A DNA stretch of 64,000 nucleotides from Moritella sp. (GTDB taxonomy: Bacteria > Pseudomonadota > Gammaproteobacteria > Enterobacterales > Moritellaceae). Numbering within the stretch: position 1 is the stretch's first letter; each line of letters opens with the position of its first letter. The stretch covers positions 1 through 64,000 of the forward strand of contig NZ_JABSQR010000010.1 in assembly GCF_013215705.1 (NCBI RefSeq), in the 5' to 3' direction. The position numbers were made by a program, and so were the translations under genes. Positions 48,456-64,000 of the stretch are shown here, one piece after another. The notes beneath the pieces are model-generated. The model had not been told where the DNA came from. It searched no databases and saw only the letters and a list, made by a program, of their open reading frames with translations.

Positions 48456-49029
48456 TCGCCGTTCATATAGCTTATCTAAGTTAGGTCATCCTGCGCCATC
48501 TGAAGCAGAACTGCGGAATTTGTTTGACTTAGTGATGACAACACCAGATCACGGTAATGTGAAACCGTGGCGTTTTATTGTTGCCCGTGGTGATAACATG
48601 CAAAAATTAGGTGATTTGACGTTGGAGTTATACAAACGTCAAAGTGATAATTGTGAGCTAAAAGATAAAGCGTACCGTTCTGCAAGAGATATTGCTGCGG
48701 TACCTATGATGATTATGGTGGTAACGGATCTTGATCCAGAACATAAAGTATCATTGTGGGACCAACGATTGTGCGCTGCAGCCGCAGCTCAGAACATCAT
48801 GAGCGGATTGCATTTAATGGGATATTCTGGTCTTTGGTATACATTTTTAGCGAGTGATGATGTTAAACCTATGTTTGGTATGAAGCCTGAAGATCAGGTC
48901 GTAGGTGCGATTGCGGTCGGCACGCCAAAGCCTCATTTTGTGAAAAAGATTAAACGCCAGTCGCCAGATAGATATTGTTTTGAATGGCAGGGATTAGGCG
49001 TCACGCCAACCCCTTTGTTCACTAAATAA
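48430..49029 (+). CDS. Nitroreductase-family flavoprotein, YdjA-like
   Basis: The 199-residue protein of the FMN-binding nitroreductase fold has DRRSYSLSKLGHPAPSEAEL near the start, the FMN-contact stretch TTPDHGNVKPWRFIV, and GLHLMGYSGLWYT and VGAIAVGTPK later. It resembles YdjA, the smallest member. The ATG at 48430 has AAGGA eight bases upstream and matches the family start; the frame extends 19 codons further inside yejF-like sequence without support. Its overlap with the importer ATPase suggests a linked job. Candidates are ferric-siderophore reduction or redox tailoring of the peptide; neither is shown. It converges with the thioesterase gene (8-base overlap). Confidence 0.82.
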   Translation: MNPLESLLDRRSYSLSKLGHPAPSEAELRNLFDLVMTTPDHGNVKPWRFIVARGDNMQKLGDLTLELYKRQSDNCELKDKAYRSARDIAAVPMMIMVVTDLDPEHKVSLWDQRLCAAAAAQNIMSGLHLMGYSGLWYTFLASDDVKPMFGMKPEDQVVGAIAVGTPKPHFVKKIKRQSPDRYCFEWQGLGVTPTPLFTK

Positions 49030-49738
49030 TAGTCATTTTATTGCGGAGTTGTTGAGCAATTGTGGTTAAGAATAGTGGTAAATTCTGATTGAAATAGAAA
49101 TGGTCACCTGGCATTTCTATTAATTCAAACTCTGACTCTGTGAATGAAGACCATTGCTCGACATTACGCTTTTCGACGACAGGATCATGACTGCCATATA
49201 TCGCTGTGATTGGCACTGATATTGCGGATGTATCGCTGCAGCTGTATTCTTCATTGAGTTTTAAATCGGCTCTGATTATAGGCAACATTAATGCCATCAA
49301 TTCAGTGTGAGCTAACACTTCATCTGCTATCCCGCCCATTGTTTTTAATGTTTTAATTATCTCGTCATCGGTTTGTCTACTCGATAAGGATGATGGGAGA
49401 TGACAGAGTGGCGCTTGACGTGCCGAAATAATCAATTGTGAAGGCAAAGGCAGTTTTAACTTGCCTAATAAGCGTGTGGTTTCAAAGCACACCAACCCGC
49501 CTAAGCTATGACCTAAAAAGGCAAACCCTGTTGTATGCTTTATCTTGGGTTTAATTTGATCGAGCAAGTCATGCGTTAACGCTGCGATTGAATCAACGGG
49601 GTTATCGCAGAAGCGAGTCCCTCTCGCTGGATATTCTAATGCGACCAGTTCAATATTTTGTTGTGCTAATAATACTTTCCATGGCTGATACATACTGGCT
49701 GCACTGCCTGAAGAAGGAAAGCAAAAAAGTGTTTTCAT
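49022..49738 (-). CDS. Type II thioesterase for the NRPS
   Basis: The 238-residue alpha/beta-hydrolase of the external (type II) thioesterase family has an N-terminal FCFPSSGSAASMYQPW, the nucleophile Ser78 in GHSLGG, the acid in YGSHDPVV and the His in MPGDHFYF. Type II thioesterases remove wrong or stalled acyl groups from carrier domains and so keep the NRPS working. It is the last gene of the leftward group MbtH, receptor, thioesterase. A hairpin between it and the receptor may lower its expression. Confidence 0.92.
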   Translation of the reverse strand: MKTLFCFPSSGSAASMYQPWKVLLAQQNIELVALEYPARGTRFCDNPVDSIAALTHDLLDQIKPKIKHTTGFAFLGHSLGGLVCFETTRLLGKLKLPLPSQLIISARQAPLCHLPSSLSSRQTDDEIIKTLKTMGGIADEVLAHTELMALMLPIIRADLKLNEEYSCSDTSAISVPITAIYGSHDPVVEKRNVEQWSSFTESEFELIEMPGDHFYFNQNLPLFLTTIAQQLRNKMTII

Positions 49739-49804: not shown

Positions 49805-52102
49805 TTAAAAATTATATGCTGCACTCAATGAAATTGTTCTTGGTGAACCTAAGTACACTGCGTTCTGAGATGAATCAGATGACGCGGTGTAGTATCCTTC
49901 ATCAAATAGGTTTTTCACATTTAGTTGAAGTTTTAGATCGTTATCAGCAAAGTCTGGTGCATACCAAATAGCCGCATCGATTAGCGTGTAAGCATCTAAA
50001 GTATAATCGTATTCTAGACGGCGGTTACCTGCGCGATCTCCAACGTAACGAACGCCACTACCAATCCCCCATTCATGGCTTGCCTGGTATGTTAACCAAA
50101 GGCTTGCATTATTTTTAGGTACGTTTACAGGCTCGCTAATGTCATCTGGAGCATCAATAAATTCAACGTCTGTATAACCATATGAGAATAGAGCGGTTAG
50201 ATCGTCTGTGATTGTATAATCACCATCTAATTCGAAGCCTTGACTTTGTTGTTTATAAACGTCGTAACTACCCGTTATATCACCCGCATAAGCCACATTT
50301 TTTAGCTCTGTGTGGTAGACCGTCGCAGTGAAGTTCAAACGGTGTCCTAATAGCGATAATTTACTACCGACTTCAAATTGTCTGCCGTTTTGGGCTTCAA
50401 CCCATTCATTTGCAACACTGTCAAATTTTTGATTCGGTAGGTAAGAATCAGTAAAGTTACCAAACAAGGATACTTGACGGTTTAATTTATACAAAGCACC
50501 CGCTTGTACACTGATATTTTTTTCTTTAGGGCTTTTTGAAGTGGTATTTTTGAGGGTCTGACCAAGGGCTTGAGCGCCTTGCTGTACAGTTGGATCCCAA
50601 GTTTCCGCATACTCGGCTTCAAAGACGTCATAACGTGCACCAAGTACGAAGTTCCAGTTGTTGTATTCGATCAAATCCTGGACGAAAACACTATATTCAG
50701 TCAGTTCGGTCTCAGTTTGTCTTACGTCATACATGTCATTTGGATGAGATGCTTGGGAAGGATCATCACTATAATAATCAAATACTCCGCTACCTGTGTT
50801 TGGGGTACGTAGTACACCTTTTGAGTAAGGCGCAAAATCATTTTTACTCCAGCTTGCCGATGCTGATTGGTCTTCTTTTTCTTTATAGTAGGTATAATCA
50901 GTACCTATGATTGTACGATGTTCGAGTGCTCCAGTATAAAATTCAATGTTATTCTCCCAAGAATATAATTGAGTATTACTGGATTGCTCACTGCCGTTGA
51001 TATAGCGGTTGATCGTGCCATCAAAAGCTTTCTTATATTGATCTTCAAAATACATTGGAAACCCATATGGGGAGGCTTGAGATGCTGCTGATGATGCATA
51101 AAAATGTACACGTTCGGCCGACGATTTTCTTTCATAATTACGTGCTTTAAAGCGCATAGACCAGTAGTCGTTAATGTCATGATCAATGTCAAAACCAAAC
51201 TTGTGGACTTCTCGTTCCTGACGAGAGAAATCAGTGCCCAGACGCTTCTCATCAATATCTAAAAATTCCCAACCTGTATTGCTACTATTGCGAACAGCTA
51301 ATGTACCGCGATCGAAAGGAAGTTCTTCTTTATTGTATTTATAAGAGAATGTGAGTGTCGTATCGTCTGTGACTAGCCAGCTAAGGCTTGGTGCAATGAA
51401 TACTTGTTTACTGTCAGAAGCATCACGCCAGCTTTCAGAATCGTCAAACACACCCACCAGACGGTATAGCACTGTACCATCGTCATTCGCAGGGCCGCTG
51501 AAGTCCACACTGAGTCGTTGTTTACCGTGTTCATCCATTGTCACTTTTACTTGATTTTGTGCAATTGGAGTTGGACGTTTACTGATCAGATTAATCAGGC
51601 CACCAGGGCTCATATTCCCATACAAAACAGATTCAGGGCCTTTTACTACTTCGACAGATTCGAGATCTTCAATAACGGCTTTGTCTTGAGCTACGCCGTA
51701 AACTCGAGTCCCATCTTCATAAACATTGGCTTCAAAACCACGGATTTTGAATAAATCGCGTGTACCACCAAAGTTATTGTGCTCTGTTACGTTACTGACA
51801 TTTTGCACCACATCACTCAGGTCTGAAGCAGCTTGTTGTTCCATTACCTCTGAGTTGATGACTTGTACCGAGCGCGGAACACTAGATAAGTCAGCTTCTG
51901 AACGCATGGTCGATTGGGCAATATTGCTGGTTAAAGTCTGTTTAATTCCGACTACTCTCGTAACCTGTACGTCTTCTGTTACGCCTTTATTTACATCTTG
52001 TTCTGATGAAAATACAGATGTTGAGGTTGCGAGAAGAGTCATCATTAGATATTGCGGTTTTAATGAAAAACTAATGGCTTTAGCTAGTTTAGATTTGAGC
52101 AT
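49805..52102 (-). CDS. TonB-dependent ferric-siderophore receptor
   Basis: The 765-residue outer-membrane receptor has a signal peptide ending near SVFSSEQ and a TonB-box-like stretch (VTEDVQVTRVVG). The plug domain includes SVPRSVQVINSEVMEQQ, FKIRGFEANVYEDGTRVYG and VEVVKGPESVLYGNMSPGGLINLISKRP, as in FhuE/FpvA-type receptors. A 22-strand barrel ends in the canonical SLSAAYNF with terminal Phe. There is no N-terminal FecA-like signalling extension. With the Fur box upstream and the NRPS next door, it is presumably the receptor for the siderophore made here. Confidence 0.95.
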   Translation of the reverse strand: MLKSKLAKAISFSLKPQYLMMTLLATSTSVFSSEQDVNKGVTEDVQVTRVVGIKQTLTSNIAQSTMRSEADLSSVPRSVQVINSEVMEQQAASDLSDVVQNVSNVTEHNNFGGTRDLFKIRGFEANVYEDGTRVYGVAQDKAVIEDLESVEVVKGPESVLYGNMSPGGLINLISKRPTPIAQNQVKVTMDEHGKQRLSVDFSGPANDDGTVLYRLVGVFDDSESWRDASDSKQVFIAPSLSWLVTDDTTLTFSYKYNKEELPFDRGTLAVRNSSNTGWEFLDIDEKRLGTDFSRQEREVHKFGFDIDHDINDYWSMRFKARNYERKSSAERVHFYASSAASQASPYGFPMYFEDQYKKAFDGTINRYINGSEQSSNTQLYSWENNIEFYTGALEHRTIIGTDYTYYKEKEDQSASASWSKNDFAPYSKGVLRTPNTGSGVFDYYSDDPSQASHPNDMYDVRQTETELTEYSVFVQDLIEYNNWNFVLGARYDVFEAEYAETWDPTVQQGAQALGQTLKNTTSKSPKEKNISVQAGALYKLNRQVSLFGNFTDSYLPNQKFDSVANEWVEAQNGRQFEVGSKLSLLGHRLNFTATVYHTELKNVAYAGDITGSYDVYKQQSQGFELDGDYTITDDLTALFSYGYTDVEFIDAPDDISEPVNVPKNNASLWLTYQASHEWGIGSGVRYVGDRAGNRRLEYDYTLDAYTLIDAAIWYAPDFADNDLKLQLNVKNLFDEGYYTASSDSSQNAVYLGSPRTISLSAAYNF

Positions 52103-52474: not shown

Positions 52475-53440
52475 ATGAGCAAAACTACTAATTTACGTAT
52501 TAATCCTATGTTTGCAGAACATGATTTACCGAAGATTGTCACCCCTACTGTAGGCGGGCGATTATCGGACTATTTGCAAGATGCACATCAGATTGTTGAA
52601 GAAGAGTTGCTACGCGCTGGTGGGGTATTATTTCGAGGATTTGACACGATAGGTGAAGAACCATTTCAAGAGTTTGCTCGTTCGTTTGGCTCGCCATTAC
52701 TTAATTATGAATTTGCTTCTACGCCAAGAACCGATCTTGGCGATGGTGTTTATACCACTACAGAGTATCCCGCACATCAACAGATCCCACTGCATAATGA
52801 GCAGGCTTATACCCTTAATTGGCCGATGAAAATTTGGTTCCACTGTATTACGCCAGCTGAAACTGAAGGTGAAACCCCGATTGCTGATAGCCGCCTAATT
52901 TACAATAAAATAGATCCTAAAATACGCCAACGTTTTGATTCTAAAAAATTAAAATACGTTCGCAATTATGGGAATGGACTCGATCTGCCATGGGAAAAAG
53001 TATTTGGAACCGAAGATAAAAAACAAGTTGAACGTTTTTGTCTGGCCAATAAAATTAACTTTGAATGGAATCTCGATGGTGACTTAAGAACCAGTCAGGT
53101 ATGTCAGGCTGTTGCTCAGCATCCTAAAACTCACGAAATGGTCTGGTTCAATCAAGCGCACTTATTTCATATCTCTAACCTTGAAGCCAATATTCGAGAA
53201 ATTTTGTTATCTGTCGTAGACGAAGAAAACCTGCCACGTAATGTGTATTACGGAGATGGTTCTCCTATCGAAGACTCTATTTTGGCTGAAATTCGTGGTG
53301 TGTTAGACGAGTGCACAATCAAATTTCCATGGCAGGCTGGAGACATTCTGATGTTGGATAATATGCTTGTTGCTCATTCTCGTTCGCGTTTTACTGGTGC
53401 TCGTAAAGTTGTGGTTGCTATGGCCGAAGGTAATGTTTAG
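52475..53440 (+). CDS. SyrP/TauD-type Fe(II)/2-oxoglutarate hydroxylase
   Basis: The 321-residue protein of the TauD superfamily has the iron ligands visible as H107-x-E109 (LHNEQAYT) and H301 (VAHSRSRF), and a 2-oxoglutarate-binding Arg in GARKVVV (R310). The overall pattern (VLFRGFDTIGEEPFQEFARSFGSPLLNYEF; GETPIADSR) resembles SyrP-type enzymes that beta-hydroxylate amino acids bound to NRPS carrier domains, typically aspartate. The gene is 11 bases upstream of the first NRPS, whose first adenylation domain has an aspartate pocket. It most likely produces beta-hydroxyaspartate, an iron ligand; this is inference from family and context. Confidence 0.9.
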   Translation: MSKTTNLRINPMFAEHDLPKIVTPTVGGRLSDYLQDAHQIVEEELLRAGGVLFRGFDTIGEEPFQEFARSFGSPLLNYEFASTPRTDLGDGVYTTTEYPAHQQIPLHNEQAYTLNWPMKIWFHCITPAETEGETPIADSRLIYNKIDPKIRQRFDSKKLKYVRNYGNGLDLPWEKVFGTEDKKQVERFCLANKINFEWNLDGDLRTSQVCQAVAQHPKTHEMVWFNQAHLFHISNLEANIREILLSVVDEENLPRNVYYGDGSPIEDSILAEIRGVLDECTIKFPWQAGDILMLDNMLVAHSRSRFTGARKVVVAMAEGNV

Positions 53441-53451
53441 GAAGATTTAAA

Positions 53452-56400
53452 ATGGAATTAGAACAAACTCAAGTGGAACAAAACGACAAAGGACTTAGAC
53501 TAGATGTCTCTTCGAACCAGAAATCGCTGTGGTTTTTGTATAAGCTAGCCCCTGAATCTTCCGCTTACAATATGTATTTTTCTACCTTGTTAGGTGGCAG
53601 AGAGCAGCATGCTATTGATATTAATTTATTGGAGCAGAGTTATTATCATACGATAGAGCACCATGATGCGCTTAAAACGGGTTATCAACAAGATGAAAAG
53701 GGGGTTTATGCTTTTCTCGCTCCGCATAAATCAGCGGATTTTTCTGTTGAAAACCACAGCTTCACAGAAACAGAAAAGGATGATTGGATAGCAAAGTGCG
53801 CTGATCAGCCATTTGAATTAGAGCAAGGTTATGTGTGCCGAGCGAATGTGTTGATAAATGACACCGATGGTAAGGTAACACCTTATTTAATTGTGACATT
53901 GCATCATATTGCTGGTGATTTTTATTCTATTGAGCAAATGGTTGCTACTTGGGCTAAGTATTATTCTCAGCTTGTTGATGGCACAACGGATCCTGCACCG
54001 TCAGTGCAGTATAGTCAGTGGGTTACAGAACAAAAGCAATACCTTGCTTCAGATGCGGCAGATAGAGCGTTAACGTTTTGGAAAAGTGAGTTAGCTCCCT
54101 TACCAGCACCTTTGTCTATTAGTACGGATTTTGAGCGTGGAGATATTCAAAATTTTGATGGTTGTGAGTTGCAATTCGATGGTAATCAAGCGCTGACGGA
54201 TAAAGTTACTGCGTTGGCTCGTGAGACTAAGACCACATCATATACTGTCTTGCTAAGTGCTTTTCAGTTCTATTTACATAAACTGTCTGGTCAATCTAAG
54301 TTTCTGATTGCGTCGCCAACGATGGGGCGTTATAAGCGAACCCATAAAGAAATTGTTGGTTATTGTGTTAATCCTTTTCTTATTCCTGCTGATTTTACAG
54401 AGCCTTGTAACTTTACTGAGTTGATCGTTGAACGTGCTCGTTTTTATCGTCAATCATTGCGGCATCAAAGAATGCCTCTGACAGAAATCAGTGAAGCATT
54501 GATAGATAATAGAAGTGCGGAACGTACCGCGGTGACTTCGCATATGTTTACTTATACACGAGCTAATGACCGTATTATTGGTATGCCGATATCCGATCAT
54601 ATAATTGACTCGGGACAACGTGGTGCTGCACACGAACTTAATTTAGTTGTCTATGAATATGAGAACTCGTTTCGTTATCACTGGCGTTTTAATTCTTCAC
54701 TATATACTGCGGAAACGGTCACCGCGATTGCCGATGGATTCTTTGAGCTCTTAGATGAGTTGCTGTTAGCACCTAATAAATTGCTTATTCAGCATCAGTT
54801 CAAAGCTTGGTTGCCGGATGCTAAACCCGTAACCCCTCGTTACGAAACTGGGTTGGCGATGTGGCAAGATATTACGCCTACGCAGCCAGCATTATTATAT
54901 AACGAACAGGTATTAACTGTTGCAGAGATAAGTGAACAAGCATCTCGTTTAGCCTATGCACTGTCGCAATCCAATGTGAACCATCGCGATCGCGTTGCTA
55001 TTTTATTACCACGGGGTGTAGAGCAAGTGATCGCGATGCTCTCCGTGTGGTATGTCGGAGCTGCTTTTGTACCGTTAGATGATGGTCAGCCTAATGAACG
55101 TACACAAATAATGCTTAAAGAAGCAGATGTCGAAGTGTGTGTTGGTGCTGGCAGCAGACCTGATTGGTTACCCGAGATTTATCATTGGTTAGACGCGACT
55201 GATGTTTTAGCTCAAGTCTCGCAACCCTTGGTTAAGCCTCTTGTATTATGTGCAGAGGATCCGGCTTATTTAATCTTTACTTCTGGTTCGACTGGGATAC
55301 CCAAAGCCGTGTCTGTTGGTCATGGTGCACTGGCTTCGTATGTCGAAGCTGTAAATCGTCGCTTAGATCTACCCAAAAATAGTGTGTATGCGAGCCTTGC
55401 TAGTGTGGCTACTGATTTAGGCTATACGGCACTTTGGGCTGGATTATTATCTGGGAATCAAGTGCGTATTTTAGATCAAGCGTTCATGCTTGATGCTGAA
55501 GGATTAGCTGATCACTTGGCTAAATATCCAGTTGATATGCTTAAAGTTGTCCCTTCTCATTTACAAGGATTATTGGCATCGGAGCGTAGTGAAATATTAC
55601 CTCGACACACTTTAGTCTTTGGTGGTGAAGACGTTAATAATAGCTTACTTGAACAGCTTCGCGTTTATTCCTCTGAGCTCAACGTTTTTAATCATTATGG
55701 ACCAACTGAAGCAACGGTAGGTGTTATTGCGGGTCGTTTACTTGCTGGTGAGCCTACAGCTTTAGGAACGCCGCTTGATGGTTGTCGAGTTTATCTATTA
55801 GATAGTTTGCTTCAAGCTGTCCCTGTTGGTGCTATCGGCGACTTGTACATAGCGGGTAATCAGTTAGCGCAAGGATATTGGCAAGATAGCGCGAAAACAG
55901 CACAGCATTTTATGAGTGATCCGTTTTATTCTGGTGAGCGAATGTATCGATCTGGAGATCGAGCTAAACAGCTGGCAGACGGACGAATTAAATTCATTGG
56001 TCGAGCTGACGGTCAAGTTAAAATTAGAGGGTATAGAGTTGAACTAGCTGAAATTGAAACTCAACTTAATGCGCTGGATGGTGTTGTTGAAGCCGCCATT
56101 ATATTCGATAAAACTGAAGGGCGTGAAAAACTCACTGCCGTAGTTGTCAGTAAGCAAGATAAAACAGAATTATCTCGTTTGTTATCAATGTGTTTACCGA
56201 GTTATATGCAACCGCATTACTGGCAGTCAGTAGCCGAGATACCGCGTACTATTAATGGTAAAGTTGATCGAAAAAAATTAGCCTTAAACTTGAATGGTAG
56301 TACGAATGAATCCGATTCAAAATCTTTATTGAGTTCAGATCAAGGCGTTCTATTTTTCTGTCGCTTGTTTGCTAAAGTCTTGAATAAGCAGGCCAATGAG

Positions 56401-59400
56401 ATAACTAGTCGTGATGGTTTCTTTGCTGTTGGCGGTGACTCTATTTTAGCGTTGCAGTTAGTGGCAATCGCTCGAAAAGAAGGCGTTAAATTAACACCGC
56501 AGTTGTTATTTAAACATCAAACACCTGTTGAGTTAGCAGAGGTTATGGCAGATCAATTACCGCTGTCGGATCCTAAGGAAAAACTTCATGAGCAAGCTAT
56601 ATCAGCACTCGCTCAGCTATGGTCAAAGACGTTATCAAAGCAAAATGTTGAGTCGAGTGATAACTTCTTTGAAATAGGAGGTGATTCTATTTTAGCGCTG
56701 CAGTTTATTGCTGCTGCACGCAAGAAAAATATCATTCTGCGTCCTCAGGATGTTTTTAAATATCAAACACTGGCTGATTTAGCCTTGTTTATTGTGCCGC
56801 AGATAGAAGAACAAAATGCGAGTGCTGAGCAAATATCGTCTACGACAGTGATGAAGACTGAGCAATCTGTATCTCGTTATGATCTGGATATATTACCTGA
56901 AACGTTAACCGTTGATGATGTGATGGCAACCATTTCTGCCCGTGATTTAAATACCATTTGTCAGGATATACCGGCATCTTTAATTGATGATGTGTTACCG
57001 CTTTCACCTACTCAACAAGGGATCTTGTTCCATTGTTTGTTGGATCCGCAACCAGAATTGTATTTAAACGTAACGAGTATGGCTCTCACTGGTAGCATAA
57101 ATACAGACGCGTTTCTTGCCGCATGGAAAAGCGCAGCGCAGCGTCATGATGTAACCCGAAGCCGTTTTATTTGGCATGATCTTGAACATCCTTATCAGGT
57201 GGTATGCCGACATACTGAGATGAACACAGTAATGCAAGATTGGCAGGCATTATCGATAGCGGAACAGAACGCTAAATTTGAGGAACTCGTCGCTGAAGAG
57301 CATCAAATTGGATTTAAACTGACTGATGCACCGCTTATGCGCGTGATTTTAGTTAAATTATCTCCTCAAGATCACCGCTTAATATGGACGCGCCATCATT
57401 TGATCGTAGACGGTTGGACATCGGCATTAATTGCGGGTGATGCGATGGCTATTTATCAGCAAAAAGATTTACAACCAGCGCCGCATTATGCCGACTATTT
57501 CACTTGGTTAGGTCGTCAAGACATGGCATATGCCGGAAAAGAGTGGCAAGCGTACTTAGCTGATTTTACCCAAACGACACATTTACCTGGTCCAGAAACC
57601 CCGATGCAAGGGCAAAAACATTGCCAGTATCAAATAGCCGAGTCGGTTACGCAGAAGTTGAAGGCGCAGGCTAGAGCACATGGTTTAACGTTAAATACGT
57701 TGGTGCAACTGGCGTGGGGGATTACGTTAAGTCGATTTACTGGTGGTTATGATGTGATATTTGGAATGACGTCTGCTGGACGCCCGCAGGAAGTTTCAGA
57801 TATTGAGCATATGGCTGGCGTGTTCATTGCTAGTTTACCATTACGAACTCGTTTCAATCCTGCTGAGCGATTAGTTGATTGTGCAACGCAATTACAGCTC
57901 GATGCATCTGAGTTACGAAGCATTGATTACATGCCACTTGCAGAGATCCAATCGTATGTTGATCTAGAGCCAGGAGAGTTACTGTTTGATACCGCTCTGG
58001 TATTTCAAAACTACCCATTTCCTCAAGAACTGAGGGAGATGACCACGCCAAAATTTGAGCTGCTGGAGGTATCTGAATCAAGTAATTTCCCGATGATGTT
58101 ACAAGTTGAGCCTAGTCATATTCTGAATATCAATTGTTCTTTTGATACTCAAAAAGTCTCACAAGATTTAGCGACTAGCATGTTAACCATGCTTGACGCG
58201 GCGCTAACCTATCTTTCTGAAGACGTAGATACCTATACTTATCAACTCATTGATTTGTTAACGTTATCGACAGTCGTGAATGAAACTCAAGTGGATTTAC
58301 CTGCGAAGTGGGATTGGTTAGATCAAGTTAAATTACGTGCGAATGAAGATGGTGCAAGCCTAGCCCTGATTGCTGACGATCGCCAGTTAACTTATGAAGA
58401 GTTAGTTGCTGAAGTGTCAGAACTCGCTGGCGCTATGGCTGGATTCAACCTCAATCATGAGCAGCCGATAGCTGTTTGTTTAACACGTGAAGCTGATCTT
58501 GTTGTTACTTTATTAGCGATTTATCAATTGGGCTTATCTTATATCCCATTAGATCCATTGTTGCCAGAACGCCGCTTGGAAGATATTTTTAATCAAGCTG
58601 AACCTCAGTTAGTGATAACGGATCGGACTTTCGACTCTGCACCTTGTCTCTCTCCTACAGAACTAAAAAAACAGTCTAAAGGGCCTGGCCCTGTCGTTGA
58701 CTGCCACCCAAATACATTGGCATACACTATTTTTACATCTGGTTCTACAGGCCGCCCGAAAGGTGTTCAAATTGATCGTTCCGCGTTAAATTATTTCTTA
58801 CAAGCGATACAGGATGTAGTGAATATATCTGCTGAAGATCGGTTGTTGGCCGTGACCACGATTGGTTTCGATATTGCTGTATTAGAATTATTATTGCCTT
58901 TGGTGCACGGTGCGACCTTGGTGTTAGCTAACGAACAACAGAGTAAAGATAGCCAAGCATTAAGTCAGCTATTATCACAGCATAAAATCAGTGTGATGCA
59001 AGCAACACCTGCAACATGGCAAAGTTTGGCTGATATTGACAGTGCTTGGTGGTCATCACTTAATGTACTGACTGGTGGTGAGGCGTTGAATGCAGCATTA
59101 GCTGAATTATTGATAAAAAAAGCAGCGAGTGTGACCAATGTTTATGGTCCAACAGAAGCGACCGTTTGGGCATCAAGTTCGCGTGTTGAGCGTGTCACAG
59201 GTAAATTAGCGGCGCTAGGTAAGCCATTAATTAATACTCAGTTTTATGTTTTAGATAGCGCACTTCAGCCGGTATTGTCAGGGGTTGAAGGTGAGTTATA
59301 TATTTCAGGATTAGGGTTAGCTCGCGGGTATTTAAACAGTCCTAAATTAACCGCCGAGAGTTTTTTACCTGATCCTTTCTCACAAGCTCCGGGACAACGT

Positions 59401-60072
59401 ATGTATCGCACTGGCGATCGCGTTTATTTCGATTCGAAAGGTGAGTTGCAGTACATAGGTAGAACTGACTTCCAAGTGAAATTACGTGGATTCAGAATTG
59501 AATTGGGTGAAATTGAAGCCGTGCTTCAGGCGCAAACCGGTGTTAAGGAAGCTATCGCTTTAGTATGGCAAGCGGATACTGAACATGGCTATATCGCTGC
59601 TTACGTCACGTTACGTAAATCTGCAGTCTTAGATAGTGAACTGCTGTTACGCCTGATTGCCGAGCATTTACCCGTTTATATGGTACCAACTGAACTTGTG
59701 ATCCTCGATGCAATGCCATTGAACAGCAATGGCAAAATCGATCGCAAAGCGCTACCAGAATCTGATAGTCATGGGATGGGCCATTACTTATCTCCACAAA
59801 CTGAACTTGAGCATCAATTAGTGGATATTTGGCAACAAATCCTAGGGCATGATCAGATAGGTATCCAAGACAGCTTCTTTAGACTAGGGGGCAATTCGCT
59901 TTCTGCAACTCGTCTACAAGCTAGAATCCAGCGAACATTCAGCGTACAGATCCCATTAGCTGAGTTATTCCATAATCCGACAATTGCCGAACTTGCCACA
60001 CTTTTAGAAAAAGAGTCGTTGCAACAAGATGATCTGGCAATGATGGCTGATCTACTAGACCAATTTGAGTAA
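53452..60072 (+). CDS. Nonribosomal peptide synthetase, C-A-T-T-C-A-T
   Basis: The 2206-residue NRPS has seven domains by motif: C1 (about 15-440, HHIAGDF with H151/H152/D156), A1 (about 460-940, FTSGSTGIPK; core 4'-PP sites follow), T1 (Ser997, GGDSI), T2 (Ser1079, GGDSI), C2 (about 1180-1600, LSPTQQGILFH, HHLIVDG at 1315-1321), A2 (about 1620-2100, FTSGSTGRPK) and T3 (Ser2149, GGNSL). Pocket residues read D655 L656 T659 K698 V722 G724 H748 V756 G757 K937 for A1 (aspartate) and D1807 I1808 L1811 Q1850 L1873 G1875 V1897 V1905 W1906 K2095 for A2 (glycine). The tandem T1-T2 is unusual. C1 at the N-terminus may be a starter condensation domain that adds an acyl group. No thioesterase is present, so the chain passes to the next protein. 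Confidence 0.95.
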   Translation: MELEQTQVEQNDKGLRLDVSSNQKSLWFLYKLAPESSAYNMYFSTLLGGREQHAIDINLLEQSYYHTIEHHDALKTGYQQDEKGVYAFLAPHKSADFSVENHSFTETEKDDWIAKCADQPFELEQGYVCRANVLINDTDGKVTPYLIVTLHHIAGDFYSIEQMVATWAKYYSQLVDGTTDPAPSVQYSQWVTEQKQYLASDAADRALTFWKSELAPLPAPLSISTDFERGDIQNFDGCELQFDGNQALTDKVTALARETKTTSYTVLLSAFQFYLHKLSGQSKFLIASPTMGRYKRTHKEIVGYCVNPFLIPADFTEPCNFTELIVERARFYRQSLRHQRMPLTEISEALIDNRSAERTAVTSHMFTYTRANDRIIGMPISDHIIDSGQRGAAHELNLVVYEYENSFRYHWRFNSSLYTAETVTAIADGFFELLDELLLAPNKLLIQHQFKAWLPDAKPVTPRYETGLAMWQDITPTQPALLYNEQVLTVAEISEQASRLAYALSQSNVNHRDRVAILLPRGVEQVIAMLSVWYVGAAFVPLDDGQPNERTQIMLKEADVEVCVGAGSRPDWLPEIYHWLDATDVLAQVSQPLVKPLVLCAEDPAYLIFTSGSTGIPKAVSVGHGALASYVEAVNRRLDLPKNSVYASLASVATDLGYTALWAGLLSGNQVRILDQAFMLDAEGLADHLAKYPVDMLKVVPSHLQGLLASERSEILPRHTLVFGGEDVNNSLLEQLRVYSSELNVFNHYGPTEATVGVIAGRLLAGEPTALGTPLDGCRVYLLDSLLQAVPVGAIGDLYIAGNQLAQGYWQDSAKTAQHFMSDPFYSGERMYRSGDRAKQLADGRIKFIGRADGQVKIRGYRVELAEIETQLNALDGVVEAAIIFDKTEGREKLTAVVVSKQDKTELSRLLSMCLPSYMQPHYWQSVAEIPRTINGKVDRKKLALNLNGSTNESDSKSLLSSDQGVLFFCRLFAKVLNKQANEITSRDGFFAVGGDSILALQLVAIARKEGVKLTPQLLFKHQTPVELAEVMADQLPLSDPKEKLHEQAISALAQLWSKTLSKQNVESSDNFFEIGGDSILALQFIAAARKKNIILRPQDVFKYQTLADLALFIVPQIEEQNASAEQISSTTVMKTEQSVSRYDLDILPETLTVDDVMATISARDLNTICQDIPASLIDDVLPLSPTQQGILFHCLLDPQPELYLNVTSMALTGSINTDAFLAAWKSAAQRHDVTRSRFIWHDLEHPYQVVCRHTEMNTVMQDWQALSIAEQNAKFEELVAEEHQIGFKLTDAPLMRVILVKLSPQDHRLIWTRHHLIVDGWTSALIAGDAMAIYQQKDLQPAPHYADYFTWLGRQDMAYAGKEWQAYLADFTQTTHLPGPETPMQGQKHCQYQIAESVTQKLKAQARAHGLTLNTLVQLAWGITLSRFTGGYDVIFGMTSAGRPQEVSDIEHMAGVFIASLPLRTRFNPAERLVDCATQLQLDASELRSIDYMPLAEIQSYVDLEPGELLFDTALVFQNYPFPQELREMTTPKFELLEVSESSNFPMMLQVEPSHILNINCSFDTQKVSQDLATSMLTMLDAALTYLSEDVDTYTYQLIDLLTLSTVVNETQVDLPAKWDWLDQVKLRANEDGASLALIADDRQLTYEELVAEVSELAGAMAGFNLNHEQPIAVCLTREADLVVTLLAIYQLGLSYIPLDPLLPERRLEDIFNQAEPQLVITDRTFDSAPCLSPTELKKQSKGPGPVVDCHPNTLAYTIFTSGSTGRPKGVQIDRSALNYFLQAIQDVVNISAEDRLLAVTTIGFDIAVLELLLPLVHGATLVLANEQQSKDSQALSQLLSQHKISVMQATPATWQSLADIDSAWWSSLNVLTGGEALNAALAELLIKKAASVTNVYGPTEATVWASSSRVERVTGKLAALGKPLINTQFYVLDSALQPVLSGVEGELYISGLGLARGYLNSPKLTAESFLPDPFSQAPGQRMYRTGDRVYFDSKGELQYIGRTDFQVKLRGFRIELGEIEAVLQAQTGVKEAIALVWQADTEHGYIAAYVTLRKSAVLDSELLLRLIAEHLPVYMVPTELVILDAMPLNSNGKIDRKALPESDSHGMGHYLSPQTELEHQLVDIWQQILGHDQIGIQDSFFRLGGNSLSATRLQARIQRTFSVQIPLAELFHNPTIAELATLLEKESLQQDDLAMMADLLDQFE

Positions 60073-60075
60073 ATT

Positions 60076-63000
60076 ATGAATCAGAATATAAATTCAATCA
60101 ATATTGCAATGCGCTTGGCCAAATTGTCAAAAGAAAAAAAAGTGCAGTTTAGAGCCTTGTTAAAAGAAAAAAATATCGACAGTTGGCAATTACCTATTGT
60201 TGCTGCAGCAAGAGAAGATAAAATGGAAGTCTTGTCTAATGCTCAGCAGCGCCTGTGGTTTATAAACCACTATGAGCAAGGGAGTTCTGCCTATAATTTG
60301 TTTACGTGTTTAGACATAAAAGGTGATATTGATACTGGTGCGCTAAAATTAGCACTTCGAGAAGTGCTTAACCGCCACACTATATTACGCAGTACATATC
60401 ATGTTGTAGATGGTAAACCGATGCAACGAGTCGAAGTTGACTATGCGCTACCATTTTGGGCTGAATCGGATGTGCCCAATTTAGAACAACGCAGTTTGGC
60501 CGTCGCTGATGCGGTATTTGATTTAGAAAACGAGCTACCTTTGCGTATCTATCTATTATCAGATAAGTCCAAGCAGACCCGTTTGGTGTTTGTTGCACAC
60601 CATATCGCTTTTGATGCTTGGTCTGAAGCTGTGCTTGTTAAAGAATTCTCTGAATGTTATGCCCGTTTTACATCTCAGGGAAGCGCTCAAGCACCGTCTG
60701 TACCTGAACTACAATATGCTGATTTTGCGCTATGGCAACAAGAGTGGCTTGAAAGTGAAGCTGCAGAGTTACAATTAAAATATTGGGAAAAGCAGCTAAT
60801 AGGAATGCCTGAGTGTATGCCTTTACCCCTTGATTTTCCTCGTCCTGACGTATTATCAAGAACCTATCAGGGGGCTGAAGTTCAACTTGATGTCCCTGAC
60901 AACGTGTATCTTAAACTGCAGGATATGGTGAGAGAGCAAGGCACAACGCTTTATTCAGTGATGCAAGCAGGCTTTTCATTACTATTAAATAAACTGGGAG
61001 CAGGCCAAGATATATGCTTAGGTACGTCGGTAGCGAGCCGTCAGCGTCCTGAGCTGGAAAGCATGATTGGCTTTTTGGTTAACACGCTTGTTATTCGCCA
61101 TCAGCTACAAGATAAGCAAAGTTTCAGACAGTTAATTGACCAAGTGTCAGAAACAACTCGGGAGGCGTTTGAGCATCAAGAGTTACCTTTCGATTTGGTT
61201 GTCGATAAATTGAATATTCCTCGAGGTAAAGCGTGGAGCCCATTGTTCCAAGTGCTTTTCGTTCATCGTAATGTTCCTCGTCAAGCACTCCAACTGGGGG
61301 AACTGGAATTAACTCAGGTACCGCACCAGAGTAACCGTGCTCGTTTTGATCTCACGTTACGCCTTACTGAAGATGATAATAAGTTGAGATTAGATTTAGA
61401 ATATAGCCGTGAACTATTCAACGACGAAACGGTTGTTGACTTATTAAATCGATATTTACAGCTATTAAGTGCGTGTTTAAGTACGCCAGATACGCTGATC
61501 GATATAGATCCGGCTTTAGCTGTAAAAAGTCCTGTTGCACAGTCATTATCACATGATGCTACCGCTAATCACGCGTTAACGACGGAACAAGAATTACAAA
61601 TAACGAATCAGTTGATTGCTCTATTCACTGATATGCTAGGGCGTGAAGTTTCTGCGGATGACAGTTTCTTTGAGCTCGGTGGTGATTCAATTCTAAGCTT
61701 ACAATTGGTCGCTAAAGCCAAAAAATCAGGTTTAACCTTGACGCCTAAATTATTGTTTAAGGCGCAAACACCGCAAGCGATAGCCGCTGCAATAATCGCC
61801 GAATTACCAACTAAAACTGTGCCGACTGTAACAAATATACCTTCGCAGTTACCGGCCTTACTTGCTGCATTTAAGCAGTTGCTTGGTAATCAAGCGTTAA
61901 CGGAGAAGGACAGCTTTTTTGAGCATGGTGGTGACTCTATCCTTAGTCTGCAGTTAGTCGCGAAACTAAAAAAACAAGGGATTAAAGTTACGCCAAAGCA
62001 GGTTTTCGCACTGCAAACGCCTTACCATATCGCACAAGCTCTCGCTGCTGAGGAGGGGCCGTCCGAGATTATAGGCAATGAGTTATTGAACGATAATAAC
62101 AGTAGTCCATCTGAATATCCGATGGCGCCTATTCAGCATTGGTTTTTTGAACAACAGCTTAAGCATGCCGCTCATTGGAATCAATCGGTACTCTTGAGTC
62201 ACGATAACGTGTTAGACGTTACTTGTTTTACTAAAGCCGTAGAACAAGTGTTAGCAACGCATCAGCAATTAGCGATGAATTTCACACCGACTAAAAATAG
62301 CGATTATCAGCAGTTTATTGGCAATCATCAGGTTGAAGTTTGTTCACACACTATTCATAGCGAAGCATTGCAATCTCAATTATCAAGTCTGCAAAGTACG
62401 TTATCACTGAGTGGAACTGCACCTATCCGAGTCGATTTATTTAAGTTAAGTGATCAACCACAAGGACGTATTTTATTTACGGCCCATCATTTGGTTATCG
62501 ATGCTGTTTCTTGGCGTATATTGGTTACGCAAATTTGGCAAACTTACCAGTTATTGAGTCATGGGCTTTCTACTGATGGTTCGTTAGAAACATACCAAAC
62601 CACATCTTATCAAGCATGGGTTGATGATTTATTACAGTGGCCTGAACATAAGATCAAGGCGGCACGTGATTATTGGTCGCCGATGGCAAGCGAAGCTCAA
62701 GAAATGCAACAAGCTTGGGTGTCATTGCCGATGAATAACTTAGACAATGCCCAAACAATTGAAAATCATATCCGCGATGTTGATGTTATTGAAGTCAAAC
62801 TACCTGCTCACTTGACTGAAAAATTGATTTCTAAGTCCTTGTCTGCTTACCAACTAAAAATTGATGAATTAATGCTAGCTGCTGTGACATTCGCAATGTC
62901 GCAATGGCGTGGTTCTAATACAATGTTGATTGAACTAGAAAGTCACGGGCGTCATCATGATGACCTCGATTTATCACAAACGATAGGTTGGTTCACGAGT

Positions 63001-64000
63001 CGCTATCCAGTGTTATTAGCATCTATTGATAATTGTTCATCAGATTTACTGATGCGTCAGCATATTCTGTCTATTAAAGATCAGTTACGCGCAGTGCCTG
63101 ATTATGGGCAAGGTTTTGGTGTGCTGAAGTATCTGCATAATGAAGTGACGGAGCTTGTTACACCTGCTTTAGTATTTAATTATCTTGGTCAAATTGATAA
63201 AGGCATGATGAGTCAAGGCGTTGGACTCGCGCCTGAGCAAATTCCTAATCAACGCCACGGCGATAATACTCGACCACAATGGTTAGACTTAAATGCAATG
63301 ATTACCGGCGGTAAATTAAATATGCGCTGGAATTATAATACCTTGGTGAATACAAAAGATGAGATCAAGTTGTTGGCATTGACTGTCATCGAGTACTTGT
63401 CAAAAATGATTGAACATTGTGAGCATACTGATAATGCGATATCAAAATCTGAAGTACCATTATTGACGTTAACCCAACCCGAGCTTGATAGCTTAGTAGA
63501 CTTAATACCAGCCCCCCAAGACACCATTAAGGATATATATCCTTTAACGCCGTTACAAAATGGCATGTTGTTCCACACATTGTCAGAACAAAGCTTAGGT
63601 ATGTATGTAAACCAAAGTCTGGTTGAACTAGATGGAGAACTTGATGTTAAGGCATTAGAATCTGCTTGGCAGTGGGTAATCAATCAACATGATATGTTAC
63701 GTACAGGTTTTATTTGGCAACAACTAGATGAACCTATTCAATATGTTGTTAAAGAGTCACAAGTTGATTGGCAAAATATTAATTACCTTGGAAAAATAAC
63801 AAGCGAAGCAGAAGCTGAATTGAAGGTATTAGCCGAACAAGAGGTTGATACCGGGTTTGAGTTAAATAAAGCTGGCTTGATGCGTTTTAAATTAGTGAGA
63901 TTAGCAGAAAATCATCACTGTCTAATTTGGACTCGACATCATTTAATTGTGGATGGTTGGTGTACTAATTTGGTTATAAGAGAAGTACAACAAGCGTACC
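60076..64000 (+). CDS. Nonribosomal peptide synthetase, C-T-T-E-C..., cut by window end
   Basis: The frame starts at ATG 60076, three bases after the first NRPS stop, and stays open for 1308 codons to the window edge. Domains by motif: C (about 45-470, AHHIAFDAWS with H175/H176/D180), T (Ser538), T (Ser621), epimerisation domain (PMAPIQHWFFEQQ; HHLVIDAVSWR with H804/H805/D809; a later FNYLGQI) and the start of another C (YPLTPLQNGMLFH at about 1155; HHLIVDGW near 1288). Between the first C and first T there are only about 45 residues, so this module has no adenylation domain. The residue it carries must be loaded from elsewhere and be turned to the D form. The rest of the protein lies beyond the window. 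Confidence 0.93.
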   Translation, partial: MNQNINSINIAMRLAKLSKEKKVQFRALLKEKNIDSWQLPIVAAAREDKMEVLSNAQQRLWFINHYEQGSSAYNLFTCLDIKGDIDTGALKLALREVLNRHTILRSTYHVVDGKPMQRVEVDYALPFWAESDVPNLEQRSLAVADAVFDLENELPLRIYLLSDKSKQTRLVFVAHHIAFDAWSEAVLVKEFSECYARFTSQGSAQAPSVPELQYADFALWQQEWLESEAAELQLKYWEKQLIGMPECMPLPLDFPRPDVLSRTYQGAEVQLDVPDNVYLKLQDMVREQGTTLYSVMQAGFSLLLNKLGAGQDICLGTSVASRQRPELESMIGFLVNTLVIRHQLQDKQSFRQLIDQVSETTREAFEHQELPFDLVVDKLNIPRGKAWSPLFQVLFVHRNVPRQALQLGELELTQVPHQSNRARFDLTLRLTEDDNKLRLDLEYSRELFNDETVVDLLNRYLQLLSACLSTPDTLIDIDPALAVKSPVAQSLSHDATANHALTTEQELQITNQLIALFTDMLGREVSADDSFFELGGDSILSLQLVAKAKKSGLTLTPKLLFKAQTPQAIAAAIIAELPTKTVPTVTNIPSQLPALLAAFKQLLGNQALTEKDSFFEHGGDSILSLQLVAKLKKQGIKVTPKQVFALQTPYHIAQALAAEEGPSEIIGNELLNDNNSSPSEYPMAPIQHWFFEQQLKHAAHWNQSVLLSHDNVLDVTCFTKAVEQVLATHQQLAMNFTPTKNSDYQQFIGNHQVEVCSHTIHSEALQSQLSSLQSTLSLSGTAPIRVDLFKLSDQPQGRILFTAHHLVIDAVSWRILVTQIWQTYQLLSHGLSTDGSLETYQTTSYQAWVDDLLQWPEHKIKAARDYWSPMASEAQEMQQAWVSLPMNNLDNAQTIENHIRDVDVIEVKLPAHLTEKLISKSLSAYQLKIDELMLAAVTFAMSQWRGSNTMLIELESHGRHHDDLDLSQTIGWFTSRYPVLLASIDNCSSDLLMRQHILSIKDQLRAVPDYGQGFGVLKYLHNEVTELVTPALVFNYLGQIDKGMMSQGVGLAPEQIPNQRHGDNTRPQWLDLNAMITGGKLNMRWNYNTLVNTKDEIKLLALTVIEYLSKMIEHCEHTDNAISKSEVPLLTLTQPELDSLVDLIPAPQDTIKDIYPLTPLQNGMLFHTLSEQSLGMYVNQSLVELDGELDVKALESAWQWVINQHDMLRTGFIWQQLDEPIQYVVKESQVDWQNINYLGKITSEAEAELKVLAEQEVDTGFELNKAGLMRFKLVRLAENHHCLIWTRHHLIVDGWCTNLVIREVQQAY

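What the first reader, a model, noticed from the sequence alone, without database searches (positions are those of the whole stretch)
60076..62600. NRPS module with two carrier domains, an epimerase and no adenylation domain
The second synthetase begins C-T-T-E. Only a short linker (about residues 470-515) separates C from the first T, and neither holds A-domain core motifs such as SGSTG, YGPTE or RGYR. An E domain needs a loaded aminoacyl or peptidyl T, so an amino acid must be supplied in trans or by another module's A domain. Loading of several T domains by one A domain is known from yersiniabactin HMWP2. Combined with tandem T domains, this is a rare design and could represent an undescribed loading scheme.
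Basis: partly seen in the sequence, partly recalled or inferred. Interest (0 to 1): 0.8.

Follow-up and report, generated by a model that had tools for sequence, protein, structure and literature searches.

The report
Siderophore synthetase module lacking adenylation domain
One module of a bacterial assembly line, probably for an iron scavenger, has no domain to pick and load its amino acid yet keeps its other parts intact, so it most likely borrows aspartate from a neighbouring module's loading domain, a rare arrangement with a close published precedent.

Summary
The second synthetase (60076-66798, 2240 aa) reads C-T-T-E-C-A-T; 28 residues separate C from the first T and no A domain is detectable. 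Two other genomes of the genus, one a single contig, carry the same C-T-T-E, and all four domains are under purifying selection, so it is not a misassembly. The line is C-A(Asp)-T-T-C-A(Gly)-T | C-T-T-E-C-A(Ser)-T | C-A(Ser)-T-E-C-A(Asp)-T-T-E-C-A(Gly)-T-TE: seven modules, six A domains, beside a TauD-type dioxygenase and a siderophore receptor. A more distant genome has C-A(Asp)-T-T-E at the same place, after a Gly module, so the A domain was probably lost. Best explanation: aspartate is loaded by another Asp-A domain, most likely A1 of the preceding protein, giving a third (beta-hydroxy)aspartate ligand. Loading of tandem T domains by a distant A domain is already described (koranimine KorC/KorD), so the scheme itself is not new. 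A twist: module 1 has A but no E, yet a post-E-type C follows it; module 3 has E but no A. They may share both. A1 as the source is a lean, and nothing was tested at the bench.

The parts
60076..63999 (+). Second synthetase gene N2 (gene continues to 66798 on the contig; 2240 aa in all): C-T-T-E-C-A(Ser)-T
60202..61506 (+). Condensation domain of module 3 (residues 43-477)
   Evidence: in a 188-row C tree its nearest kin (support 81) are six C domains, all standing before A(Asp)-T-T
61507..61590 (+). 28-residue C-T linker where an A domain would stand; no A motif
61591..61812 (+). First carrier domain Ta (residues 506-579, FFELGGDSI)
61840..62061 (+). Second carrier domain Tb (residues 589-662, FFEHGGDSI)
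62101..63405 (+). Epimerization domain (residues 676-1110)
63514..63999 (+). Start of the condensation domain of module 4 (post-E type; continues beyond the window)
53452..60072 (+). First synthetase gene N1 (2206 aa): C-A1(Asp)-T-T-C-A2(Gly)-T
54817..56307 (+). A1, the most likely loader: nine-position code DLTKVGHVG (Asp)
   Evidence: code given for Asp/Asn in passages of PMC12283262
56335..56811 (+). Tandem carrier pair of module 1; sister of the module-3 pair in the T-T tree (94/94, not decisive)
56971..58245 (+). Condensation domain of module 2: post-E type although no E precedes it
52475..53440 (+). TauD/TfdA dioxygenase, proposed Asp beta-hydroxylase
   Evidence: 59-67% identical to TauD proteins beside T-T/Asp clusters of G243, G825, G852 and (fragment) G153
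49805..52102 (-). TonB-dependent siderophore receptor (TIGR01783, 293.7 bits, cut-off 223.5)
49022..49738 (-). Stand-alone (type II) thioesterase

Best explanation
The C-T-T-E unit is module 3 of a seven-module siderophore synthetase. Its own Asp-type A domain has been lost in this genus; C, both T and E remain functional. Aspartate is activated by an Asp A domain of another module, most likely A1 in the preceding protein (less likely A5 in the third), and transferred in trans onto the module-3 T pair. C joins it to the acyl-Asp-Gly chain, the TauD enzyme may beta-hydroxylate it, and E turns it to the D form before the next C (post-E type) takes it. The product would then hold three (beta-hydroxy)aspartates, i.e. 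three bidentate ligands, enough for six-coordinate iron. Shown: domain order, presence of the A domain at the same place in a relative, conservation, codes. Inferred: the loss, loading in trans, A1 as source, hydroxylation, product.
For: The matching gene in G153 (another family of the order) starts alike by eye and is C-A(DLTKLGHIG)-T-T-E-C-A, directly after a C-A(Gly)-T gene, the same order as modules 2 and 3 here. Module-3 C lies in an 11-row clade (support 94 of a 188-row tree) in which 7 of 8 other rows precede A(Asp)-T-T. Module-3 E lies in a 21-row group (92) in which 14 of 18 other rows have an Asp-type code. 19 of 21 T-T modules with a complete A carry DLTKxGHxG, against 13 of 172 single-T modules carrying DLTK (loci found with T-T and module-3 queries, so a biased set). 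The module-3 T pair is sister to the module-1 pair (94/94). dN/dS against G007 (own script): C 0.093, Ta 0.081, Tb 0.103, E 0.175. Among the 9 A domains over cut-off only A1 and A5 have an Asp code. Precedent KorC/KorD. In the related family-f6 clusters another module lacks its A in 4 genomes and has one in G852, so A domains come and go in this pathway family.
Against: No biochemistry. A1 over A5 is a lean only: holding the module-3 T pair with the A5 pair (p-AU 0.052) or with G153's (0.085) is not firmly rejected, and by pairwise identity Ta is as near to G153's T domains (49, 45%) as to module 1's first T (47%), while Tb's closest outside kin are family-f6 and G153 T domains, not module 1's. 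The module may be a mosaic: its C is nearest to f6 modules that lack E, its T pair to module 1, so 'loss from C-A-T-T-E' rests on G153's layout. The E group also holds this cluster's Ser-module E (three genomes) and one other, and 3 of the 17 E domains with a DLTK code fall outside it, so E kinship alone would allow Ser. E3 evolves faster than the two other E domains (0.175 against 0.095 and 0.059) and has ESHGR and DAVSW where EGHGR and DGVSW are usual (recalled), perhaps weakened. Asp and Asn share the code DLTKVGHVGK.
Confidence: 0.65

Rival explanations
1. The module is skipped: the chain passes over or through module 3 without adding a residue, and the product is a hexapeptide.
For: Six A domains, as for a hexapeptide; module skipping is known in NRPS (recalled); E3 is the fastest-evolving E of the line.
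Against: The residue handed over by module 2 is predicted Gly, which E cannot epimerize, yet E and the following post-E-type C are kept; C, both T and E are under purifying selection with catalytic motifs in place.
Confidence: 0.13
2. Asp is loaded by A5 of the third synthetase rather than A1, or by both.
For: A5 also has an Asp code (DLTKIGHIG) and stands in a C-A-T-T-E module, the layout module 3 would have with an A domain. In koranimine the loader is KorD, listed after KorC. p-AU 0.052 does not reject kinship of the two T pairs.
Against: Module-3 T domains are 29-32% identical to the module-6 pair and 32-46% to the module-1 pair; the tree leans to module 1.
Confidence: 0.15
3. Another amino acid is loaded in trans (for example Ser by A3 or A4).
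For: Module-3 E groups with both the Ser-module and the Asp-module E of the same cluster (9-row clade, 95); A3 is on the same protein.
Against: C kinship, the T-T pair itself and the G153 gene point to Asp.
Confidence: 0.07
4. Assembly collapse or sequencing error removed the A domain.
For: The own assembly is in 58 contigs.
Against: Same C-T-T-E in two other genomes, one a single contig; reading frame intact in all three.
Confidence: 0.01

Closest known systems
Koranimine synthetase KorC/KorD (Bacillus)
   Same: Tandem T domains both charged by the A domain of another protein (passages of PMC9640594 and PMC12283262)
   Different: Valine rather than Asp; the passages seen do not mention an E domain there; product is a cyclic imine, not a siderophore; the loader is listed after KorC, here it is probably the preceding protein
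Syringomycin SyrE module 9 with SyrB1/SyrC
   Same: A-less module charged from outside (section 4.1 of PMC8949500)
   Different: Uses a stand-alone A-T protein and a shuttle; no such A-T protein among the 9 A domains over cut-off here
Yersiniabactin HMWP2 (recalled, no call)
   Same: One A domain loads several carrier domains
C-A(Asp)-T-T-E modules in family f6 genomes and G153 (found here)
   Same: Asp code, tandem T, E; TauD 59-67% identical in G243, G825, G852, G153; siderophore receptor beside the G243 cluster
   Different: They keep the A domain
Beta-hydroxyaspartate lipopeptide siderophores such as potashchelins
   Same: Asp modules plus stand-alone or fused TauD hydroxylase (passages of PMC7100376)
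   Different: Single carrier domains in the Asp modules and no E domains in that cluster, per the same passages

Membership tests
A-less NRPS module loaded in trans | C and T present, no A domain in the module | tested here: met
A-less NRPS module loaded in trans | A domain elsewhere of suitable specificity in the same genome | tested here: met
   A1 and A5 with Asp codes
A-less NRPS module loaded in trans | Demonstrated aminoacylation of the T domain by that A domain | not testable with these tools
   needs a loading assay
A-less NRPS module loaded in trans | Not an assembly artefact | tested here: met
   3 of 11 genus genomes including own
SyrE/SyrB1-type split module | Stand-alone A-T protein supplying the residue | tested here: not met
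   none among the 9 TIGR01733 matches over cut-off; below-cut-off matches not examined singly
Beta-hydroxyaspartate siderophore cluster | Asp A domains with TauD-type dioxygenase beside them | tested here: met
Beta-hydroxyaspartate siderophore cluster | Dioxygenase belongs to a known siderophore Asp-hydroxylase subfamily | not tested
   no such model or reference tree was at hand; nearest solved structures are general TauD-like proteins and NCBIfam gave only matches below cut-off
Beta-hydroxyaspartate siderophore cluster | Siderophore receptor or uptake genes beside it | tested here: met
   TIGR01783 above cut-off
Beta-hydroxyaspartate siderophore cluster | Iron-binding product with hydroxyaspartate | not testable with these tools
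   no chemistry

The most novel reading that the evidence does not exclude
Two modules on two different proteins share one set of domains: module 1 (C-A-T-T, no E, but followed by a post-E-type C) lends its A domain to module 3, and module 3 (C-T-T-E, no A) lends its E domain to module 1. The tandem T domains would be the feature that lets both trans activities find their carriers.
Probability: 0.2. Interest if true: 0.8.

Novelty: new variant of a known kind. Interest (0 to 1): 0.5.

Why it matters
It breaks the one-A-domain-per-residue rule used to predict peptide products from genomes: a plain count predicts a hexapeptide with two metal-binding Asp residues, while this reading predicts a heptapeptide with three. 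A relative keeps the A domain, which makes a natural with/without pair for asking how T domains recruit a foreign A domain, and whether tandem T pairs are what allows an A domain to be lost. It also gives a test of whether an E domain can serve a distant module.

Tried and rejected
The one genome-contig scan used two short patterns and returned 35 distant NRPS loci. 6 of the 35 were looked at first and their apparent full-length matches were scattered pieces; the ORFs of 300 aa or more of all 35 went through domain calling, where only L060 showed a C followed directly by a T, with one T. The scan did not name the window's genus. That it is Moritella is my guess from family size, genome size and gene content and is used nowhere as evidence; the family-f6 name is likewise not given by the tools.

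Alterobactin was considered as the product type of the related family-f6 clusters (passages). The ligase beside the G243 cluster matches mostly fatty acyl-AMP ligase models best, though below their cut-offs, so this was dropped.

A dual C/E domain after module 1 was considered as the missing epimerase: the motif HH[IL]xxxxGD (recalled) was absent near all C and E domains scanned. The tree of single T domains was too short to resolve; the T-T pair tree was used instead (26 rows, 93/91 for modules 1 and 3; 24 rows, 94/94). Two rows (L100, G856) were left out of the second because of long branches. The E tree holds 52 of the 53 E domains listed (one 45-residue fragment dropped) plus the three module-3 E domains. 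The post-E clade is the one that my script scored best for holding post-E C domains with few T-preceded ones. The AlphaFold model of C-T-T-E is of low to middling confidence (mean pLDDT 65, pTM 0.41) and serves only as a check; its best PDB matches are PvdL E-C-A and TycA/GrsA PCP-E chains.

Papers: the 2019 beta-hydroxylase paper of Reitz and others is not held and was not read; the original koranimine paper was not looked for. Searches of print were made; the listings (25, 20, 20, 4, 18, 10 and 15 papers) showed none on this cluster as far as titles and abstract starts tell. Most subscription journals are not held.

Full report
WHAT IS THERE. The flagged gene starts at 60076 and is open at the window end. 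On the contig it ends at 66798 and codes for 2240 aa; it is preceded by a 2206-aa synthetase (53452-60072) and followed by a 4548-aa one (66795-80441). Domain calls give: N1 C-A1-T-T-C-A2-T; N2 C-T-T-E-C-A3-T; N3 C-A4-T-E-C-A5-T-T-E-C-A6-T, followed by a thioesterase-type motif GWSFG. So there are seven C domains, seven carrier positions (three of them doubled) and six A domains. The missing A is in module 3, where 28 residues join C to the first T. No A signal is found there by Pfam or by a single-sequence search at maximum sensitivity.

NOT AN ARTEFACT. In the genus, 3 of 11 held genomes (own included) have the C-T-T-E region, at 96% and 79% identity over the 375-aa query in the other two, in frames of nearly the same length; the held family is the same 11 genomes. 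Both clusters were read: same domain order except that module 6 has one T instead of two in G010. Between own genome and G007, dN/dS by a script of mine (Nei-Gojobori) is 0.093 (C), 0.081 and 0.103 (T, T) and 0.175 (E) in module 3; the other domains lie between 0.023 and 0.141 except two T domains of N3 (0.306, 0.546). E3 is thus constrained but looser than the two other E domains (0.095, 0.059).

SPECIFICITIES. Nine-position codes read from alignments: A1 DLTKVGHVG, A2 DILQLGVVW, A3 DVWHISLID, A4 DVWHFSLID, A5 DLTKIGHIG, A6 DILQIGVVW. DLTKVGHVGK is given for Asp and Asn in PMC12283262 (passages); Gly for DILQ and Ser for DVWH are recalled. The predicted order is acyl-Asp-Gly-?-Ser-Ser-Asp-Gly; that a fatty or other acyl group starts it is inferred from the leading C domain.

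THE LOST A DOMAIN. In G153, from another family of the order, the corresponding gene begins with a similar N-terminal stretch (by eye) and reads C-A(DLTKLGHIG)-T-T-E-C-A, right after a gene C-A(DILQLGVVW)-T. This is the order module 2 (Gly), module 3, with an Asp A domain in place. In a tree of 188 C domains the module-3 C joins six C domains of family-f6 genomes that all precede A(Asp)-T-T (support 81; there without E), and an 11-row clade (94) in which 7 of the 8 other rows precede A(Asp)-T-T, the eighth being a C of the own genome's other NRPS cluster. In an E tree of 55 rows the module-3 E lies in a 21-row group (92) where 14 of 18 other rows have Asp-type codes; the exceptions are the Ser-module E of this cluster (three genomes) and one other, and 3 of 17 E domains with a DLTK code lie outside the group. 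Hence Asp is the likely residue and loss of A the likely history. These trees are quick ones with SH-aLRT support only, and the parts of the module do not all have the same nearest kin.

TANDEM T AND ASP. Of 21 T-T modules with a complete A domain in the fetched loci, 19 carry DLTKxGHxG, one DMTKIGEVG and one DAYWVGGTF; five of the 19 are from the genus itself. Of 172 single-T modules 13 carry DLTK. The loci were found with T-T and module-3 queries, so these are not unbiased rates. Full-length T-T matches are uncommon: in the class sample 2 of 369 genomes (own and G522), in the family of G243 nine of 246 at E below 1e-33, weaker near-full-length matches in G786 and on another contig of G825 not counted, in the family of G153 one of 9. 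Proteins or domains related to the window's TauD (59-67% identity for G243, G825, G852 and a fragment in G153; 47% for G876; about 40% for domains fused to synthetases) lie in 11 of the 17 loci scanned, two of these being the same-genus relatives; one of the six loci without a hit is the own genome's other NRPS cluster.

WHO LOADS IT. The genome has 9 NRPS-type A domains over the TIGR01733 cut-off, 6 here and 3 in a cluster on contig 3, none stand-alone; 16 further matches are below cut-off and were not examined singly (22 PF00501 matches in all). Among the nine only A1 and A5 have Asp codes. In a tree of 24 T-T pairs the module-3 pair is sister to the module-1 pair (94/94); holding it with the module-6 pair costs 14.0 log units (p-AU 0.052) and with G153's pair 11.8 (0.085). 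Pairwise identities are less clear: Ta is 47% identical to module 1's first T but 49 and 45% to G153's, and Tb's nearest outside kin are family-f6 and G153 T domains. This leans to A1 without proving it. Skipping is unlikely since the residue delivered by module 2 is Gly, which gives E nothing to do, yet E and a following post-E-type C are kept.

MODULE 1 IS THE MIRROR IMAGE. A 40-leaf clade of the C tree (97) holds 18 of 18 C domains that follow an E; of 99 C domains that follow a T only 7 fall in it, and 5 of these 7 follow a T-T pair: the module-2 C in the three genus genomes, and one each in G876 and G522. The starter C of module 1 groups (99) with G153's first C and five family-f6 C domains that open C-A(Asp)-T-T-E proteins. 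So module 1 looks like a C-A-T-T-E module without its E, and module 3 like one without its A. Whether E3 serves module 1 is speculation; six other T-T-C junctions in family f6 and one in G856 have C domains outside the clade.

SEEN ELSEWHERE? C-T-T queries over 394 genomes of the order (5 hits at 1e-30, two of them outside the genus and both with an A domain) and 398 of the phylum (18 hits at 1e-30, only the own genome covering C and both T) found no second lineage with C-T-T-E lacking A; at most five candidates per genome were scored in these searches, and both are samples. Two phylum hits reaching into the first T were read: both are A-less C-T units with one T. In the family-f6 clusters a middle module is C-T without A in G243, G911, G765 and G782, whereas in G852 the adjoining loci L120 and L128 read C-A(DAEDIGVIT)-T there. 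So A-less units are not rare, but the C-T-T-E layout was found in one genus only.

KNOWN OR NEW. Tandem T domains charged by another protein's A domain are described for koranimine (passages), and an A-less module charged from outside for syringomycin (section read). This is therefore a new variant: Asp, with E, in a siderophore line, with an A-bearing relative to compare and a possible reciprocal E loss.

Noticed in passing
L063/L026, L118, L121, L122; L120 and L128: In family-f6 clusters the module between A(DIESIGTVT)-T and C-A-T is C-T without A in 4 genomes (G243, G911, G765, G782), while in G852 the adjoining loci show an A domain (DAEDIGVIT) there.
   Followed up: partly
N3 module 6, contig C7 about 74.6-75.2 kb: The two T domains of module 6 are 90% identical in G000; the pair is present in G007 but a single T in G010, so tandem T number changes within the genus.
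   Followed up: partly
L124 residue 2229, L126 residue 706: T-T followed by a post-E-type C without any E in G876 and G522, as in module 1 here.
   Followed up: partly
L013:3537-8929 minus: In the second NRPS cluster (contig 3) an A domain is divided between two overlapping ORFs; described only.
   Followed up: no
L027:10105-10725 minus: TauD homologue in G153 appears only as a 206-aa ORF matching residues 118-320 of the window's protein.
   Followed up: no
L144:5764-14874, L145:1-8952, L060:3695-15235: Further A-less C-T units with one T in G982, G1132 and Paenibacillus pabuli.
   Followed up: partly
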